In this document: in pieces, positions 4,057 to 55,284 of the stretch
How the letters are laid out: every line of letters begins with the position of its first letter
How positions within the stretch are numbered: position 1 is the stretch's first letter
Source of the DNA: Actinomycetes bacterium
GTDB taxonomy: Bacteria; Actinomycetota; Thermoleophilia; Solirubrobacterales; Solirubrobacteraceae
Direction: 5' to 3'
Assembly (NCBI GenBank): GCA_021784895.1
Contig: JAJYHG010000152.1
Span: 1 to 64,000, forward strand
Length of the DNA stretch: 64,000 bases
The notes under the pieces: generated by a model
Seen by the model: only the letters and a program-made list of their open reading frames with translations
Databases searched by the model: none
Told to the model about the DNA's origin: nothing
Made by a program: the position numbers and the translations under genes

Positions 4057-4455
4057 TCAGCCGTGCGTCGGCACGACCACTCGCGCATCGACAGTGCGCC
4101 ACCGCTGATCGAAGGTCCAGATTACGTCGGCGCCGATCAGGTTGGCGACTGCCAAGGAGATTGCGTCGGGCAGGCTGAGCGCCCGGTGACTGGCGCGCAT
4201 CGCAGCTGCGTCATCGGCAATCGCGGCTGTAACCGGGACCGTCTCGCAACCATCGACAAAATCGCGGGCACCGGTGAGCCGACCGCCTCCCGCTGCGGAC
4301 GGGCCGACCAGGATCTCCGCACGTGAGGTCGCGGCCAAGACAAGCTCATCCTCGGCCGCCGAAGCGAGCGCGTTCGCTGCCGCCTGGTGGTGCACGTCGC
4401 TGACGGAGAGAGCAGCGATCCCGACGCTCGCGTCGAGGACGATCAGCCGCGCCAA
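4057..4455 (-). CDS. Type II toxin, PIN-domain ribonuclease (VapC-like)
   Basis: MARLIVLDASVGIAAL..., ...RASHRALSLPDAISLAVANLIGADVIWTFDQRW: PIN-domain acidic motifs; overlaps RHH antitoxin. Confidence 0.85.
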   Translation of the reverse strand: MARLIVLDASVGIAALSVSDVHHQAAANALASAAEDELVLAATSRAEILVGPSAAGGGRLTGARDFVDGCETVPVTAAIADDAAAMRASHRALSLPDAISLAVANLIGADVIWTFDQRWRTVDARVVVPTHG

Positions 4456-4703
4456 CCCGAGCGAACGTCGTCGAGGTAGCCGGGGGGGTAGACGGACTGA
4501 TCGAGTGAGCCGATTGCCGATAGCAGCCGCGCCCGGCGGGCCGCGCGCTCAGCCTGACCCGAGGGCGCCCCGAGCAGCTCGTGCCGAACCGCTGTACGGA
4601 TCAGTTCGGCCTCGCTCGTTCCACGGTCCTTTGCCGCGACCTTGAGCTCCTGGTGTAGCTCGTCTGGGAGATAAACCGTCGTCTTCACCACGCACCACAG
4701 CAT
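4443..4703 (-). CDS. Ribbon-helix-helix antitoxin (VapB-like)
   Basis: VKTTVYLPDELHQELKVAAKDRGTSEAELIRTAVRHEL RHH/CopG fold signature; overlaps PIN toxin by 13 nt. Confidence 0.85.
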   Translation of the reverse strand: MLWCVVKTTVYLPDELHQELKVAAKDRGTSEAELIRTAVRHELLGAPSGQAERAARRARLLSAIGSLDQSVYPPGYLDDVRSGWRG

Positions 4704-4934: not shown

Positions 4935-5762
4935 ATGCGGTACGTGCAAGACGAGTGGTTCACGGCCCCTGACGACCTCGACACTGTGCTGTGGAGATAC
5001 ATCAGCTTCACGAAGCTCGTCTCGCTGCTTGACACCCGGTCGCTGTTCTTCGCGCGGGCCGATACTTTGGGCGACCCATTTGAGGGATCCATCACGCGCG
5101 CGAGTCGTGAGGCCCGGAACGAAGCCCGCGCTGACGCAGATCCCGACGACGAGCTGTACGTCTCCATGATGTACCGATGGATCCGACTTCACACTTTTGT
5201 GAACTGCTGGAACCGCGGCGATGTCGAGGGTGCGGCCCTCTGGGGGCTGTATGTGCCGCCGGAGGGCGGGGTAGCCATCAAGTCATCATTTAGGCGTCTG
5301 ACGAGAAGCTTCGGAGCCGCTCGGGGAGTCACGCGCAACTCGCATGAAGACGGCTCGTTTCTCATGGGCGACGGGGTCTACGACGGCCAGGTGCGCTACG
5401 TCGACTATGACCGAGACCTCATACCCGAGCATATGAGCCTGCCGCAATTCGTCCATAAGCGACGGAGCTTTGAGTTTGAGAACGAGGTTCGTGCGCTCTT
5501 CCAGCGATTCCCTCCGCCCAAGTCGCGGGACGAACATAAGGTGTCGTTCGACATCCAAGGGACAGCAACAACCGTCGGCGAGGAGGAGAACCTACCCGCC
5601 GGAGAACTCGTGCGCGTGAGTCTCAGCACGCTGATAGACGCAATCCACGTCTCCCCAGTCGCGCCGCCGTGGTTCGCGGATCTGGTGCGCTCCGTCTGCG
5701 CACGCTACAGGCTTGACAAGCCGGTCGTGCAGTCGAGCCTTGCAGATGAGCCCGTGTATTGA
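4935..5762 (+). CDS. DUF2971 domain protein
   Basis: LWRYISFTKLVSLLDTRSLFFARADTLGDPFEGS ... FVNCWN ... YGQVRYVDY-like block, typical DUF2971 pattern. Confidence 0.85.
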   Translation: MRYVQDEWFTAPDDLDTVLWRYISFTKLVSLLDTRSLFFARADTLGDPFEGSITRASREARNEARADADPDDELYVSMMYRWIRLHTFVNCWNRGDVEGAALWGLYVPPEGGVAIKSSFRRLTRSFGAARGVTRNSHEDGSFLMGDGVYDGQVRYVDYDRDLIPEHMSLPQFVHKRRSFEFENEVRALFQRFPPPKSRDEHKVSFDIQGTATTVGEEENLPAGELVRVSLSTLIDAIHVSPVAPPWFADLVRSVCARYRLDKPVVQSSLADEPVY

Positions 5763-5900
5763 GGGGGCGCCGCGATCGCTTCGACCGATGCCGGCCACGC
5801 TGAGCGCGATCACAATGGCGATGGAGGAGTTACGCCTGGAGGAGTCACCCGCGCTTGCCTCAAAGCAGGTCCGTGCCAGAGTCGGGGTAGACACCTCGTA

Positions 5901-5994
5901 TTCGCCAAATCCCTGACGCGCGCCTGGTCGCCAATGCGCTAGCCAGGCGAGCGCAGTCTGAATCGTGGAAGCGATAGCGATCGCCAACCCCTAC
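5901..5994. repeat. Dispersed intergenic repeat copy 1 (contains GAAGCGATAGCGATCGCC)
   Basis: ~94-nt segment matching 8034..8127 (CTGAATC...AAGCGATAGCGATCGCC...CCCCT, TCGCCAAATCC at left end). Confidence 0.6.
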
Positions 5995-7901: not shown

Positions 7902-8033
7902 GCGGCCCCGGACACCCGCCATCAGCACCGGCCACCCCACAACCCGCTGCGCCCAAGAAAGCCAGCAGCCTCTCCGCCGAGAGTCGCGCCACGACAGGAA
8001 AGCGCAACTACTCGCCATTTGCGATCTTCCGTC

Positions 8034-8127
8034 CTCGCCAAATCCGGAGCCGGCGCGTAGTCGCCATTCCAATAGCGAAGCGGTCGCGGTCTGAATCTCG
8101 AAAGCGATAGCGATCGCCCATCCCCTG
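8034..8127. repeat. Dispersed intergenic repeat copy 2
   Basis: See copy 1 at 5901..5994; also 94 nt long. Confidence 0.6.
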
Positions 8128-10866: not shown

Positions 10867-11439
10867 CTACTGCACGTGGTGCTGAAGGCCAGAGACGAAG
10901 ACCTGGAACGAGCGAGATCTGTTCCGTCCTGGATCCATGTGTGCGGCAACACGCCTTGCTACTTCGACTTTCGGCATCCCAGCTCGGTAGTAGCCAGCTT
11001 GCCGCAGAACGCGGGCCAGTGCTTCCGCGGTACCCCCAGCTATGGCGTCTGGATCACGAAAGGGTGCTCGGTTGGCAAGGTTCCGCGGGACTTCGGGGTA
11101 TGCGCTACGGAGTGCTTCGACGTCGCCAAAGAACCACGCCTCCAGCTCCTCAACTGCGATACGACAAAGCGCATCTGCGCCTGCGGCTGAGCAGGTGTCC
11201 GTCAGTCGCGTCTTGAGTTCGATGCAATCCTGCTGATCGCGGTCCAAGAGAACAACCAGTCGAAGGTTCGGCCAACGGAGGCGGCTGTAGCCTCTGAGTC
11301 GGGACTCCAGCTTCTTGAGCAGGTCTGGCTTGCCTTGGTGGATGTGCGTGACAAAGGTGTGACCAGGGACGATCGCGGGAACGAGTGCCGCGAGCGCGGC
11401 GTCCATCGACGGCTCCTCGATCAGGAACTCGATGTGCAT
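10867..11439 (-). CDS. DUF4276 family (TOPRIM-like) protein
   Basis: Start MHIEFLIEEPSMDAALAALVPAI...HQGKPDLLKKLESRLRGY...LRLVVLLDRDQQDC; 8 nt after AAA ATPase stop. Confidence 0.85.
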   Translation of the reverse strand: MHIEFLIEEPSMDAALAALVPAIVPGHTFVTHIHQGKPDLLKKLESRLRGYSRLRWPNLRLVVLLDRDQQDCIELKTRLTDTCSAAGADALCRIAVEELEAWFFGDVEALRSAYPEVPRNLANRAPFRDPDAIAGGTAEALARVLRQAGYYRAGMPKVEVARRVAAHMDPGRNRSRSFQVFVSGLQHHVQ

Positions 11440-11447
11440 CGATTGAC

Positions 11448-12656
11448 TTATGCCGTCGCCTGCTGGGCGATTCGCAGCGGGTCGCCGGCGGACAGATGCC
11501 CCTCCATCCACAGGTCGCCTACTTGGGCACCTTCTGCGACGAATTCAGCGACACCGGGCATATCCGCCGCGCGTACGGCTTTCGTGTACCCATGAATATC
11601 TCGCTCGAGGGCCCAGAGTTCGTTCGGGCGTATGGCATTAACAAAGAACGGCGAGTGGGTTGACACGAATACCTGCGTATTGGACGAGACCTTTCGGCAC
11701 TCCTCCGCCAACCCATACAGCAGCCTCGGATGCAAGTAGTTCTCGGGCTCCTCTATACCGAGTAGGGAGAGGGGCTCGGGGTCATAAAGAAGCACGAGGT
11801 AGGCGAGCATCTTCAAGGTCCCATCGGAGGCAAACCTTGCAAGGAAGGGATCCTTGAACGGCGCATCCTTAACCCGAAGCAGCAGCCGGCCATCAGGCAT
11901 AGGCTCGGCCGTTACCCGCTCGAGGCGCGGCACCCGTGCGGACAACGTCCGCAGGACTGCCTCGAGGCGATCCGGATGCGTTTCGCTCAGATACTGGATT
12001 ACGTTCGCGAGATTGTCACCGGTTTGGCTCAACCGCTCGATTGGACCAGCCTCCGGAATGCCACGGGCATCCGTCGCCGACAGGTACGAGAGGTACCACC
12101 CCTGGATGAACTCCCGTAGCGCGACGACCCTCGGGTTCTCCGCCAGCTGCCCGAGTGTCGCGATCGCTAACAAGTCAGTTGATGCGAGGTGCGCGTCACG
12201 TCGCTCATCCTCTATCTCAGGGAGATCACCCGAGATGACCTGTCCAGCGCCATTAGCGAAATCAAGGAAGTTGAACGGCTTCCCGTAGCTCCCTCGCTTC
12301 CAGCGAAGAGTCTCCCGCCGGACGATCGGCTTGCCACCATCCTCATCGATCTCAAGGTGGTATGTGATTAGAGGACTGCCGGTACTCTCGCGATAGCGAA
12401 GTTCGATCGAGATAGGGCCGTCAGCCTCTCTGCTTCGCAATTCGCGAAGGCGCCCACGCTTATCCCACGCAGAACGCAGACCCGATTGGAGCGCTTCGGC
12501 TAAGAAGCCGAAGACGTCAAAGAGGGTCGACTTGCCGCTCCCGTTTGGCCCAAGAACAACGGTCAACGGCGTGAGTGCATCCAAGCGGACATCTCTCAGC
12601 GCTCGATAGTTCTTGATCTGGATCTGCTCGATGCGGGGGACCGCGGAAACGGGCAT
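11448..12656 (-). CDS. AAA ATPase (AAA_21/OLD-like ABC-type)
   Basis: Walker [12 protein letters not shown], Walker [18 protein letters not shown]-loop [11 protein letters not shown]. Confidence 0.9.
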
Positions 12657-16186: not shown

Positions 16187-16376
16187 TGGCTCCCGTCGCT
16201 CACCAGGGATGGGCGAAGACCGCTCCTCGGCCAGCCCGTAGATCACCTCCTGCGTACACGCGCGCTGCACCCACTATCGCTTCCGCTCGCACGGACTCGT
16301 GAGCGACGCTATGCCTTTGGCGACCGTCGGTGGGCGGGCTCGGCAAGCCGCAGCTCACTCAGTGCGCTCGGGCTCG

Positions 16377-17762
16377 CTAGGACTTCCTCTGGCGCAGATA
16401 GGCAACGACGCTCGCGACGCCATGTTGCCTTGGAGGAATCAACGCGCCGATGGTCCATTTTGCGATCGCGCTGAGCCCGGCGGCGGCTATGGCAGTGGTC
16501 GTGCCGCCAAGGGCTGCGCCGGTCGCGCCCGCCACTGCCACCCCAGCGGCGAATTCGACTGAGAGCTCCCGTCCGGTGCCGAACAGACGGCGTATCGATT
16601 GCGCTTCGTCTCGTACACGGCGCTCAACCGGGCCAAGTGCATCCTGGAGTACCTGCGCACTATCAGCCGCGAAATCAGCGCCATCAGCCGGGACTGTAGA
16701 TAGCCCGCGCGCCGCCTGACGAAGCGCGATTCGCCAGTCCTCCATCGCTCCTTCTTTGATCCTGAGAGTGCTCACAGCGTCGAGCGTGAGCCCATCGAGC
16801 AAAGGAAGTTCGGAGGCGTGGAGGGCGGCGAGTACCTTCAGATCCGTTCCGGTTATCCGCCTCAGTTCGTTCGTCGCTGCCTGGCACCGCAGCTCGAACA
16901 GACGCCAATCTGTAGCTGACGGCGGCACGTACGCGGCACCAGCAGCAGCCGCCACAGCGAGTGTCTTGTTCAGGTAGTAGGAGGGGTTGGCGCCAATTTC
17001 GAGTCGCCGGTCCTTGTCGCTCGCCAGGCCACCGGCGCCGGAGAGGCTTTGTTGCATCCCGCGGGTGGAGTTCGAAGTCACCGGCTGAACGTCAACTGGC
17101 GCCTGAACCGCTTCAAGAAAGGCGTCATTGCGAAGGTCGTGCCGGACTGCGCTGAGAATGCCGTCTTGCGCTCGAATGACGAGCTGCAACTGCGGAACCA
17201 GAATTGCCGCGCCCGCGGTGACTAAGGGCTCCACACTCTGAAGCGCCGGCACCGCCCACCGCAGCACCGCGAGGTTGCGTTCTCTGTCGGTCTTATGAGC
17301 GACCCAGCCGTCGGTGACGAGAATGTGTCCCTCGGAGCTCGCCACAGCGGCGCCGTTCCTGTATCGGACCACGTCAAGTGGTTGTATGCGGGAGCGGTCT
17401 GCGCAGAACCAATCGGCAAGCGGATCGTGAAGGACCACCTGATCCGCGTACAGCAACATCGTCGCCAAGATTTCTCGAGGCTGAGCGGCGGTGAAGTGAC
17501 CGCCGACCCAGGCTCCAAGGTCCACGCGAAGCCGAGGGCTTTCCGGGGCGCGCCAGCTCTGGTAGTAGCTCTGCACCGCGTACGCCAGCTCTGCGATCTC
17601 GTCAACGGTAAGCTCTTCAAGGCGGCCTGCTCTTAGATCCGCGCCGAGTACTTCTCGCAGCACGTCGACGATTGTGCGCTCCACAAGCCCATGATGCCGA
17701 AGCGCCCGAGCCTCGCTCACCGACGTGTCGTCGGCAACAGTCGTATGAGCGGCGACCGGCAT
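16377..17762 (-). CDS. Hypothetical protein (large, C-terminal hydrophobic Gly/Ala segment)
   Basis: Proposed start MPVAAHTTVADDTSV within ORF 16377..18080; good coding composition; C-terminal AAGVAVAGATGAALGGTTTAIAAAGLSAI. Confidence 0.65.
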   Translation of the reverse strand: MPVAAHTTVADDTSVSEARALRHHGLVERTIVDVLREVLGADLRAGRLEELTVDEIAELAYAVQSYYQSWRAPESPRLRVDLGAWVGGHFTAAQPREILATMLLYADQVVLHDPLADWFCADRSRIQPLDVVRYRNGAAVASSEGHILVTDGWVAHKTDRERNLAVLRWAVPALQSVEPLVTAGAAILVPQLQLVIRAQDGILSAVRHDLRNDAFLEAVQAPVDVQPVTSNSTRGMQQSLSGAGGLASDKDRRLEIGANPSYYLNKTLAVAAAAGAAYVPPSATDWRLFELRCQAATNELRRITGTDLKVLAALHASELPLLDGLTLDAVSTLRIKEGAMEDWRIALRQAARGLSTVPADGADFAADSAQVLQDALGPVERRVRDEAQSIRRLFGTGRELSVEFAAGVAVAGATGAALGGTTTAIAAAGLSAIAKWTIGALIPPRQHGVASVVAYLRQRKS

Positions 17763-18199
17763 CCGTTCGCCTTGTGTGACATGAGCACGACGGCCTGCCC
17801 CGGGCGGCCAGCCTAAGGCCAGGCTATTCCTTCCACGTACAGGCGGCTCTCGAGCAGACGATCGCTTCGGCGACAAGTGGATCGCGCTTGTATGCGGTCT
17901 TCGGACGAGGCGCGTCGCCGACGACGCGGTGTCCAGGGCGTGGAGAAGGCCCCGTGGCGGCACGGTTGTGGCAACGCGCCGACGCTGCGGCCCTCGAGCT
18001 GGCCAAGCACGTCCCCAGCGCCCCGTCGCCTGAGATGACCCACCGGCTGTTCGTCCCACCCTGGGCAGCGTCAGAACCAACCGCCCTTAGGATTCGTGGC
18101 GCGTTTGGTACCCACGAGCGGTACCCACAGCCCGACGACCACTCCCAGCGCGTGGCGAGGCAGCAACCAAACCGGCGGTTTACCAGGTAGTTTGTAGAT

Positions 18200-18271
18200 G
18201 GGCGGTGAGGGGCTCGAACCCCCGACATCCTGCGTGTAAAGCAGGCGCTCTACCAGCTGAGCTAACCGCCC
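18200..18271 (-). tRNA. tRNA-Val(TAC)
   Basis: Reverse complement GGGCGGTTAGCTCAGCTGGTAGAGCGCCTGCTTTACACGCAGGATGTCGGGGGTTCGAGCCCCTCACCGCCC; anticodon loop TTTACAC. Confidence 0.93.
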
Positions 18272-54645: not shown

Positions 54646-55284
54646 CCCTGCTGGTGCGGCTGGCGGGGAGTGACCCAGGAACTTTCACGACCGCGGCGCT
54701 ACCCGTCAGCCGACACACAGCGATTCTCCCGACCCAGGTCAAGCGTCTCCTCTCCGGCGGGCTCGCCGCTGCTTCGCCCGCCGGCCATCGGCAGCCCCTC
54801 ACTGATCTACCCTTGCGGTCATGATCGACTTCACCACTGATCTTTGCCCGATCACCACCGTGATCGCCCAGAAACAGGGTGAACTCGCCGACCGTCTCCT
54901 GCCCGCGGCCGTCAGCGACGAACACCACCCGACGTGGGATTCCGCGCATGCACAGGTTCTTGGACCCCGCGAGGCCCGCCAAGGGCTCGCGAAAACGCCG
55001 CCGGACGGTGTTGCCTTCCACATGTTGTGAGAGCGTCGGCACCTCGACTAAAACCAATTTCGGGGCTCTATAGCCCAGCCTGCGCGTACCCCTACCGACG
55101 CTTCGACAACGCCCTCACAGACGCCACCGCACGGCTCGGGGCCATCGTGGATCGCTACTCCTTCGACGTAGAGCTCTCTCATCTCCTTCTCCACGCCGGT
55201 TTCTCCCGGCGCCGCCACAACATTTGACAGTTGCTCGATCAAGTAGACGTCACTTTCAGACGACCATAACCACTAAGGAGCCCT

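What the first reader, a model, noticed from the sequence alone, without database searches (positions are those of the whole stretch)
10867..12656. Two-gene AAA ATPase + DUF4276 cassette, candidate phage-defence system
An OLD/AAA_21-like ATPase (Walker [10 protein letters not shown], Walker B, H-loop STHSPF) is followed 8 nt later by a DUF4276 protein with TOPRIM-like acidic motifs (E in LIEEPS, VVLLDRDQQD). Established: ATPase + TOPRIM pairs occur in OLD and PARIS-type defence. Inference: this split pair is a related, less-characterised defence or DNA-damage module. The locus lies among TA and remnant genes.
Basis: partly seen in the sequence, partly recalled or inferred. Interest (0 to 1): 0.68.

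Follow-up and report, generated by a model that had tools for sequence, protein, structure and literature searches.

The report
HEC-01 type defence gene pair
This is an intact, horizontally acquired copy of an already catalogued candidate anti-phage gene pair (PADLOC 'HEC-01'): an ATP-driven sensor gene followed by a gene for a probable metal-dependent nuclease; it is genuine, but it is not a new kind of system.

Summary
On the minus strand a 402-aa ABC-type ATPase (12656-11448) is followed after 8 nt by a 190-aa DUF4276 protein (11439-10867). The pair is a clear member of a catalogued candidate defence system, PADLOC HEC-01 (E 2e-163 and 3e-73). It is far below the curated cut-offs for MADS and Septu/PtuA and much closer to HEC-01 than to PARIS. 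The two genes are obligate partners: DUF4276 follows the ATPase in 76 of 80 homologous loci, and all 10 distant actinobacterial DUF4276 genes found independently sit beside such an ATPase. Homologous pairs lie between hsdS and hsdR of type I restriction operons in at least 17 loci, a plasmid and a viral contig. The window copy stands alone: its 90%-complete genome has no detectable type I restriction genes, and its codon composition suggests horizontal gain. DUF4276 shows a TOPRIM-like layout (conserved E, DxD and ExE after strands 1, 3 and 4), and a profile alignment to OLD TOPRIM domains superposes E and DxD, but no solved structure matches its predicted fold at E<=0.001, so TOPRIM is probable, not proven. 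Most likely function: ATPase-gated nuclease giving abortive-type immunity, as in PARIS. Target and trigger are unknown.

The parts
11448..12656 (-). ABC/AAA_21-type ATPase, 402 aa (HEC-01A); predicted sensor/gate subunit
   Evidence: ORF; PADLOC HEC-01A PDLC04182 E 2e-163; Pfam AAA_21; Walker A, Walker B, signature and H-loop residues invariant in 43 homologues; AlphaFold2 pLDDT 89; closest PDB folds PtuA of retron Ec78/Ec83 and Septu
10867..11439 (-). DUF4276 protein, 190 aa (HEC-01B); predicted TOPRIM-like metal-dependent nuclease effector
   Evidence: ORF; Pfam DUF4276 95 bits; PADLOC HEC-01B PDLC04202 E 2.8e-73; invariant D66, D68, E98, E100, W102 and nearly invariant E8, E9; AlphaFold2 pLDDT 88.8, strands 2-7, 28-33, 59-66, 93-97; profile match to OLD TOPRIM
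11440..11447 (-). 8-nt intergenic gap (GTCAATCG); near-contiguous genes, probably co-transcribed and translationally coupled
   Evidence: sequence; homologous pairs mostly overlap by 4 nt or lie within about 25 nt

Best explanation
The two genes are an intact HEC-01-type module. The ATPase probably forms the nucleotide-bound dimer typical of ABC/OLD/PtuA ATPases, binds the DUF4276 protein and holds it inactive. A phage-linked cue, plausibly a phage anti-restriction or DNA-takeover factor because these modules are repeatedly placed inside type I restriction operons, triggers the ATPase to release or activate DUF4276. DUF4276 then uses a TOPRIM-like acidic site (E8, D66/D68, E98/E100) with divalent metal to cut nucleic acid (tRNA as in PARIS, or DNA as in OLD), arresting the infected cell. 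Shown here: family membership, obligate pairing, conserved catalytic-type residues, signs of mobility, defence neighbourhoods of homologues. Inferred: complex formation, trigger, target, abortive outcome. Rough confidence by step: HEC-01 member 0.95; anti-mobile-element defence 0.8; TOPRIM-like nuclease effector 0.75; ATPase-gated suicidal nuclease rather than direct restriction 0.6.
For: PADLOC HEC-01 models at E 2e-163 and 2.8e-73. DUF4276 detected downstream in 76 of 80 ATPase loci (2 of the 4 exceptions are cut by contig ends) and an ATPase relative beside 10 of 10 DUF4276 genes found by DUF4276 alone. Distance matrices of the two trees correlate, r 0.66 against a maximum of 0.21 in 2000 shuffles. 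ATPase and candidate nuclease residues conserved across bacterial phyla and archaea. Pair between hsdS and hsdR in at least 17 loci, plus the Meiothermus plasmid with a DarTG-like pair alongside and viral contig L150. Genes within 2.5 kb match 177 PADLOC models at E<=1e-20 against 21 for genes beyond 4.5 kb; type I M+S subunits at least 12/110 against 2/110, Fisher p 0.005. Horizontal gain: in 3 of 151 relatives, with only distantly related copies in the other two; GC3 0.67-0.69 against 0.79-0.84 for housekeeping-type genes. DUF4276 fold layout and profile alignment to OLD TOPRIM with E and DxD superposed; best TM-score in the viral library is an RloB-like protein, 0.52. In PARIS an ATPase AriA gates the TOPRIM tRNase AriB (PMC12409363, PMC12839542).
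Against: No PDB match to the DUF4276 model at E<=0.001 and no TOPRIM structure among the 50 hits shown; the OLD profile match is only E 0.0024 for one comparison, HHsuite probability 12%. The window copy has no restriction operon or strong defence neighbour beside it, and its genome has no detectable Methylase_S or HSDR_N, so a restriction-guard role cannot be general. No phage phenotype seen; the preprint that defines HEC systems was not readable here.
Confidence: 0.65

Rival explanations
1. Direct DNA restriction: the complex acts as an OLD-like DNA nuclease on invading DNA (ends or damaged/replicating DNA) without killing the host.
For: Closest detected profile relative of DUF4276 is the OLD TOPRIM domain, a DNase in characterised members (PMC10568477). 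Placement between hsdS and hsdR could make it an auxiliary restriction nuclease.
Against: Split ATPase/TOPRIM genes are otherwise known from PARIS, whose effector cuts tRNA. There is no helicase or DNA-binding partner beside it. The window copy works, if at all, without a detectable type I restriction system.
Confidence: 0.2
2. Toxin-antitoxin-like stabilisation: the ATPase restrains a toxic DUF4276 nuclease, and the pair mainly maintains plasmids or islands.
For: Copies on plasmids including a conjugative one; obligate pairing; DUF4276 reading frame looks broken more often than the ATPase in the 80 loci, as expected of a costly effector.
Against: Recurrent insertion inside restriction operons and enrichment of restriction genes nearby point to defence. 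The ATPase is long and strongly conserved, unlike most antitoxins. The frame-break count is biased because loci were ranked on the ATPase.
Confidence: 0.1
3. Housekeeping or DNA-repair role (RecF/SMC-like ATPase with accessory nuclease), as found for the archaeal OLD protein Cran1.
For: OLD-family ATPases can have cellular roles (Cran1, PMC12796447); weak RecF/Rad50/SMC similarity of the ATPase.
Against: DUF4276 is present in 3 of 151 relatives and 9 of 297 genomes across the phylum, GC3 is unlike housekeeping genes, and homologues have defence neighbourhoods: the profile of an accessory, mobile gene pair.
Confidence: 0.05

Closest known systems
PADLOC HEC-01 (Hma-embedded candidate 1; Payne et al., bioRxiv 2024.01.29.577857, cited in PMC12988326)
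   Same: Both proteins match its models over their whole length with very strong scores; same pairing.
   Different: No operon around it here: no Hma genes beside it, and no type I restriction genes detected in the genome; stand-alone.
PARIS (AriA + AriB, class 4 OLD)
   Same: Two adjacent genes: ABC/AAA_15/21 ATPase and a small TOPRIM-like protein; single-ORF fusions occur in both (L006 here; AriAB).
   Different: AriA model scores 99 bits against 542 for HEC-01A; no AriB model matches DUF4276. DUF4276 and DUF4435 are separate Pfam families.
OLD family nucleases (class 1; Gabija GajA, class 2; retron class 3)
   Same: ABC ATPase coupled to a TOPRIM-like nuclease; DUF4276 aligns to the OLD TOPRIM domain with E and DxD in register; ExE after strand 4 resembles the E409/E411 pair of Cran1.
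   Different: Genes are split, the effector is small, there is no UvrD-like helicase or reverse transcriptase beside it; profile similarity is weak.
Septu / retron effector PtuA
   Same: PtuA structures are the closest solved folds of the ATPase (Foldseek E 2.6e-14).
   Different: Partner is PtuB (HNH nuclease) in Septu, DUF4276 here; NCBIfam PtuA model 37 bits against a cut-off of 500.
MADS (MAD3 ATPase)
   Same: MAD3 is the best NCBIfam match of the ATPase (122 bits).
   Different: Far below the cut-off of 420; no other mad genes among the neighbours scanned and no mad model matches DUF4276.
RloB / AbiLii
   Same: RloB-like protein is the best full-length structural neighbour by TM-score in the viral library (0.52); same E ... 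DxD logic.
   Different: No PADLOC AbiLii hit and no significant direct profile match (E 0.065).

Membership tests
HEC-01 | ATPase subunit matches a HEC-01 ATPase profile | tested here: met
   PDLC04182 E 2e-163, residues 7-392 of 402
HEC-01 | DUF4276 subunit matches a HEC-01 partner profile | tested here: met
   PDLC04202 E 2.8e-73, residues 1-189 of 190
HEC-01 | Both genes adjacent on one strand | tested here: met
   8-nt gap
HEC-01 | Embedded in a host defence system (how the family was discovered and named; not a requirement for each member) | tested here: not met
   Not embedded in the window; homologues are embedded in type I RM operons
HEC-01 | Protects against phages | not testable with these tools
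   needs an experiment
PARIS | ATPase is AriA by best profile | tested here: not met
   AriA 98.8 bits against 542 for HEC-01A
PARIS | Effector is AriB (DUF4435) | tested here: not met
   no AriB model at E<=0.1; the only Pfam family is DUF4276
PARIS | Activated by Ocr and cleaves tRNA | not testable with these tools
   needs an experiment
OLD nuclease (classes 1-3) | ABC ATPase and TOPRIM fused in one chain | tested here: not met
   separate ORFs here; one fused 615-aa homologue in L006
TOPRIM superfamily | Acidic residue after strand 1 and DxD after strand 3 | tested here: met
   E8/E9 after strand 2-7; D66-x-D68 at the end of strand 59-66; D66/D68 invariant
TOPRIM superfamily | Significant fold or profile match to known TOPRIM proteins | tested here: inconclusive
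   hhalign to OLD TOPRIM E 0.0024, reversed control 0.1, positive control RloB-OLD 8.6e-4; PDB Foldseek no match at E<=0.001; viral RloB-like TM 0.52 but E 0.28
Septu | PtuA above curated cut-off and PtuB HNH partner | tested here: not met
   37 bits against 500; partner is DUF4276
MADS | MAD3 above cut-off with other mad genes | tested here: not met
   122 bits against 420; no other mad genes among neighbours scanned
Gabija | UvrD-like helicase next to the OLD protein | tested here: not met
   neighbours are PadR and uncharacterised ORFs
Retron | Reverse transcriptase and retron RNA beside the effector | tested here: not met
   no retron family in the Rfam scan; no RT among the neighbours scanned

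The most novel reading that the evidence does not exclude
HEC-01 is a distinct lineage of split ATPase/TOPRIM immunity that evolved as a back-up alarm inside type I restriction operons (it fires when a phage blocks restriction) and that has also become an autonomous module, as in this genome without detectable type I restriction genes, with a DUF4276 nuclease whose target differs from the tRNA target of PARIS.
Probability: 0.25. Interest if true: 0.6.

Novelty: new member of a known kind. Interest (0 to 1): 0.33.

Why it matters
It adds a stand-alone member, in a poorly studied actinobacterial lineage, to a widespread candidate defence family whose mechanism is listed as unknown (HEC entry in PMC10855318). 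The analysis also narrows the mechanism: obligate ATPase + TOPRIM-like pairing, named catalytic residues to mutate, and a recurrent hsdS-hsdR insertion site that makes a 'guard of restriction' role directly testable.

Tried and rejected
Identity as PARIS, OLD, Gabija, Septu, MADS or AbiL was tested by profiles and partner genes and rejected. Foldseek of the DUF4276 model against the PDB gave only generic Rossmann-like hits, none significant. phmmer of DUF4276 against PDB sequences gave nothing. hhalign of DUF4276 against RloB gave no usable match (E 0.065). An alignment meant to model the natural L006 fusion put DUF4276 rows onto the ATPase and was not used. A search for an empty site in sister genomes failed because flanks are not syntenic. 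A tRNA-Val next to the region was checked as an integration site, but no matching repeat was found on the other side of the pair in the window. Promoter and terminator scans found nothing. A DUF4435 (AriB) reference set could not be built: one genome in 297. Literature: no paper in the library names DUF4276; the HEC-defining preprint is not held.

Full report
OBSERVATION. Pfam gives AAA_21 (E 1e-28) and DUF4276 (95 bits, cut-off 30). The Walker A, Walker B, signature-like and H-loop residues are invariant in 43 homologues.

WHAT IT IS. PADLOC identifies both proteins as HEC-01 over nearly their full length: PDLC04182 at E 2e-163 for the ATPase, PDLC04202 at E 2.8e-73 for DUF4276. HEC stands for Hma-embedded candidate, defined in a 2024 preprint (Payne et al.) that is cited in PMC12988326 but not readable here. 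PMC12988326 reports antiviral activity for several HECs including HEC-06; whether HEC-01 was among those validated I could not check. PMC12724379 reports HEC-01 in Desulfovibrio piger, and PMC10855318 lists the HEC mechanism as unknown.

OBLIGATE PAIR. A scan of the GTDB-based genome contigs with the ATPase returned 80 loci, 53-75% identical, from Actinomycetota, Cyanobacteriota, Pseudomonadota, Poribacteria, Verrucomicrobiota, Chloroflexota, the archaeon Methanolinea and others. DUF4276 is detected downstream in 76 of the 80; two of the four exceptions run off a contig end, and L058 and L079 lack it. Coming from the other side, all ten distant DUF4276 genes found in Actinomycetota with the Pfam model alone lie beside a relative of the ATPase, 25-37% identical. 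Patristic distances of the two proteins over 63 loci correlate at r 0.66 (maximum of 2000 shuffles 0.21); the correlation is weaker, r 0.39, among distant pairs. One Akkermansia MAG (L006) reads the two genes as one 615-aa ORF, which could be a fusion or a sequencing error.

MOBILITY. Only 3 of 151 genomes searched (the window's own and two relatives) carry DUF4276, and the ATPases in the other two are only about 30% identical. GC3 of the pair is 0.69 and 0.67, against 0.79-0.84 for several housekeeping-type genes in the window. The nearest homologue is in a Solirubrobacterales MAG (74-75%). The ATPase tree groups some phyla and splits others (Pseudomonadota needs 8 changes), compatible with both local inheritance and transfer. 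Copies occur on plasmids, including a conjugative Pseudomonas plasmid, and rarely on viral contigs (3 loci).

DEFENCE CONTEXT. Genes within 2.5 kb of homologous pairs match 177 PADLOC models at E<=1e-20, against 21 for genes more than 4.5 kb away (110 proteins each). Model counts are inflated by redundancy, so I also counted type I M and S subunits: at least 12/110 near against 2/110 far, Fisher p 0.005; loci are not fully independent and near ORFs are somewhat longer. Pfam near the pair shows Methylase_S, DNA methylases, TIR, SEFIR, Schlafen, AbiEi and nucleotidyltransferases. Direct inspection is stronger: in at least 17 of the 80 loci the pair sits between hsdS and hsdR on the same strand, as it does in viral contig L150 and Meiothermus plasmid pMtWR-220, where a DUF4433/macro-domain (DarTG-like) pair is also embedded. 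PMC12255303 describes the same hsdS-hsdR position as a potential recombination hotspot for defence genes. The window copy itself is stand-alone: no type I RM genes are detected in its 90%-complete genome, and the only other PADLOC match among the neighbours scanned is a weak PDC-S31 at 4935-5762.

THE EFFECTOR. The AlphaFold2 model of DUF4276 has pLDDT 88.8 and four alternating beta-alpha units with strands 2-7, 28-33, 59-66 and 93-97. The most conserved acidic residues sit after strand 1 (E8, E9), at the end of strand 3 (D66-x-D68) and after strand 4 (E98-x-E100). This matches the TOPRIM signature and resembles the extra E409/E411 pair of the OLD protein Cran1 (PMC12796447). hhalign to OLD TOPRIM domains gives E 0.0024 with E8 on the OLD glutamate and DRD on DxD; the reversed control gives 0.1 and a known relative pair, RloB against OLD, gives 8.6e-4. 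Foldseek finds nothing significant in the PDB; in the viral library the highest TM-score shown is an RloB-like protein at 0.52 with a non-significant E-value. My reading is probable TOPRIM nuclease, not proven.

THE ATPASE. The AlphaFold2 model (pLDDT 89) is closest to PtuA of retron Ec78/Ec83 and Septu (Foldseek E 2.6e-14). It fails the curated cut-offs for MAD3 and PtuA.

MECHANISM (INFERENCE). By analogy with PARIS, where AriA gates the tRNase AriB (PMC12409363, PMC12839542), the ATPase most likely senses an infection cue and unleashes DUF4276. Placement in restriction operons suggests a restriction-guard role in many hosts, but the window copy must be able to act alone if it acts at all. 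DNA restriction, plasmid maintenance and repair are weaker rivals.

VERDICT. It is a new member of a known, poorly understood candidate system, of modest interest.

Noticed in passing
window 16315-17874: A ~1.56-kb segment carrying most of ORF 16377-18080 (-) (no Pfam or PADLOC hit) is 97% identical in G024 and 93% in G016 (there interrupted twice), with the same sharp borders and no similarity in the flanks: looks like a discrete mobile unit.
   Followed up: partly
window 18198-18247 and G000:C41:1181-1230: 50-bp copy (96%) of the 3' half of tRNA-Val(tac) on another contig of the same genome, not called as a tRNA: resembles an attachment-site remnant.
   Followed up: partly
window 54955-55179 (-): Full-length Rfam group-II-D1D4-6 intron match (166 bits, gathering 49).
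   Followed up: no
L006:7977-9824: ATPase and DUF4276 read as one 615-aa ORF in an Akkermansia MAG; in related Verrucomicrobia the genes are 3-6 nt apart. Natural fusion or sequencing error.
   Followed up: partly
L079:9227 onward; L058: ATPase copies without DUF4276: in L079 an HsdR-like gene follows the ATPase directly, in L058 a second AAA-type ATPase.
   Followed up: partly
L007, L017, L029, L039, L054, L068, L073, L076: DUF4276 frame looks broken or truncated more often than the ATPase frame among the 80 loci; biased by how the loci were chosen.
   Followed up: no
window 4057-4703 (-) and 4935-5762 (+): PIN/RHH toxin-antitoxin pair, and a weak PADLOC candidate PDC-S31 (52.8 bits), 5-7 kb from the HEC-01 pair.
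   Followed up: partly
PADLOC-DB 2.0.0 models PDLC04143 and PDLC04144: The A and B labels look swapped for one HEC-01 subtype: PDLC04143 'HEC-01A' matches DUF4276 and PDLC04144 'HEC-01B' matches the ATPase.
   Followed up: no
window 5897-5991 and 8030-8124: 95-bp direct repeat, 75% identical, near two sigma-factor genes.
   Followed up: no
G000:C234:13082-13291 (L138): The same genome has a separate OLD-like TOPRIM gene in a 709-aa open frame.
   Followed up: no
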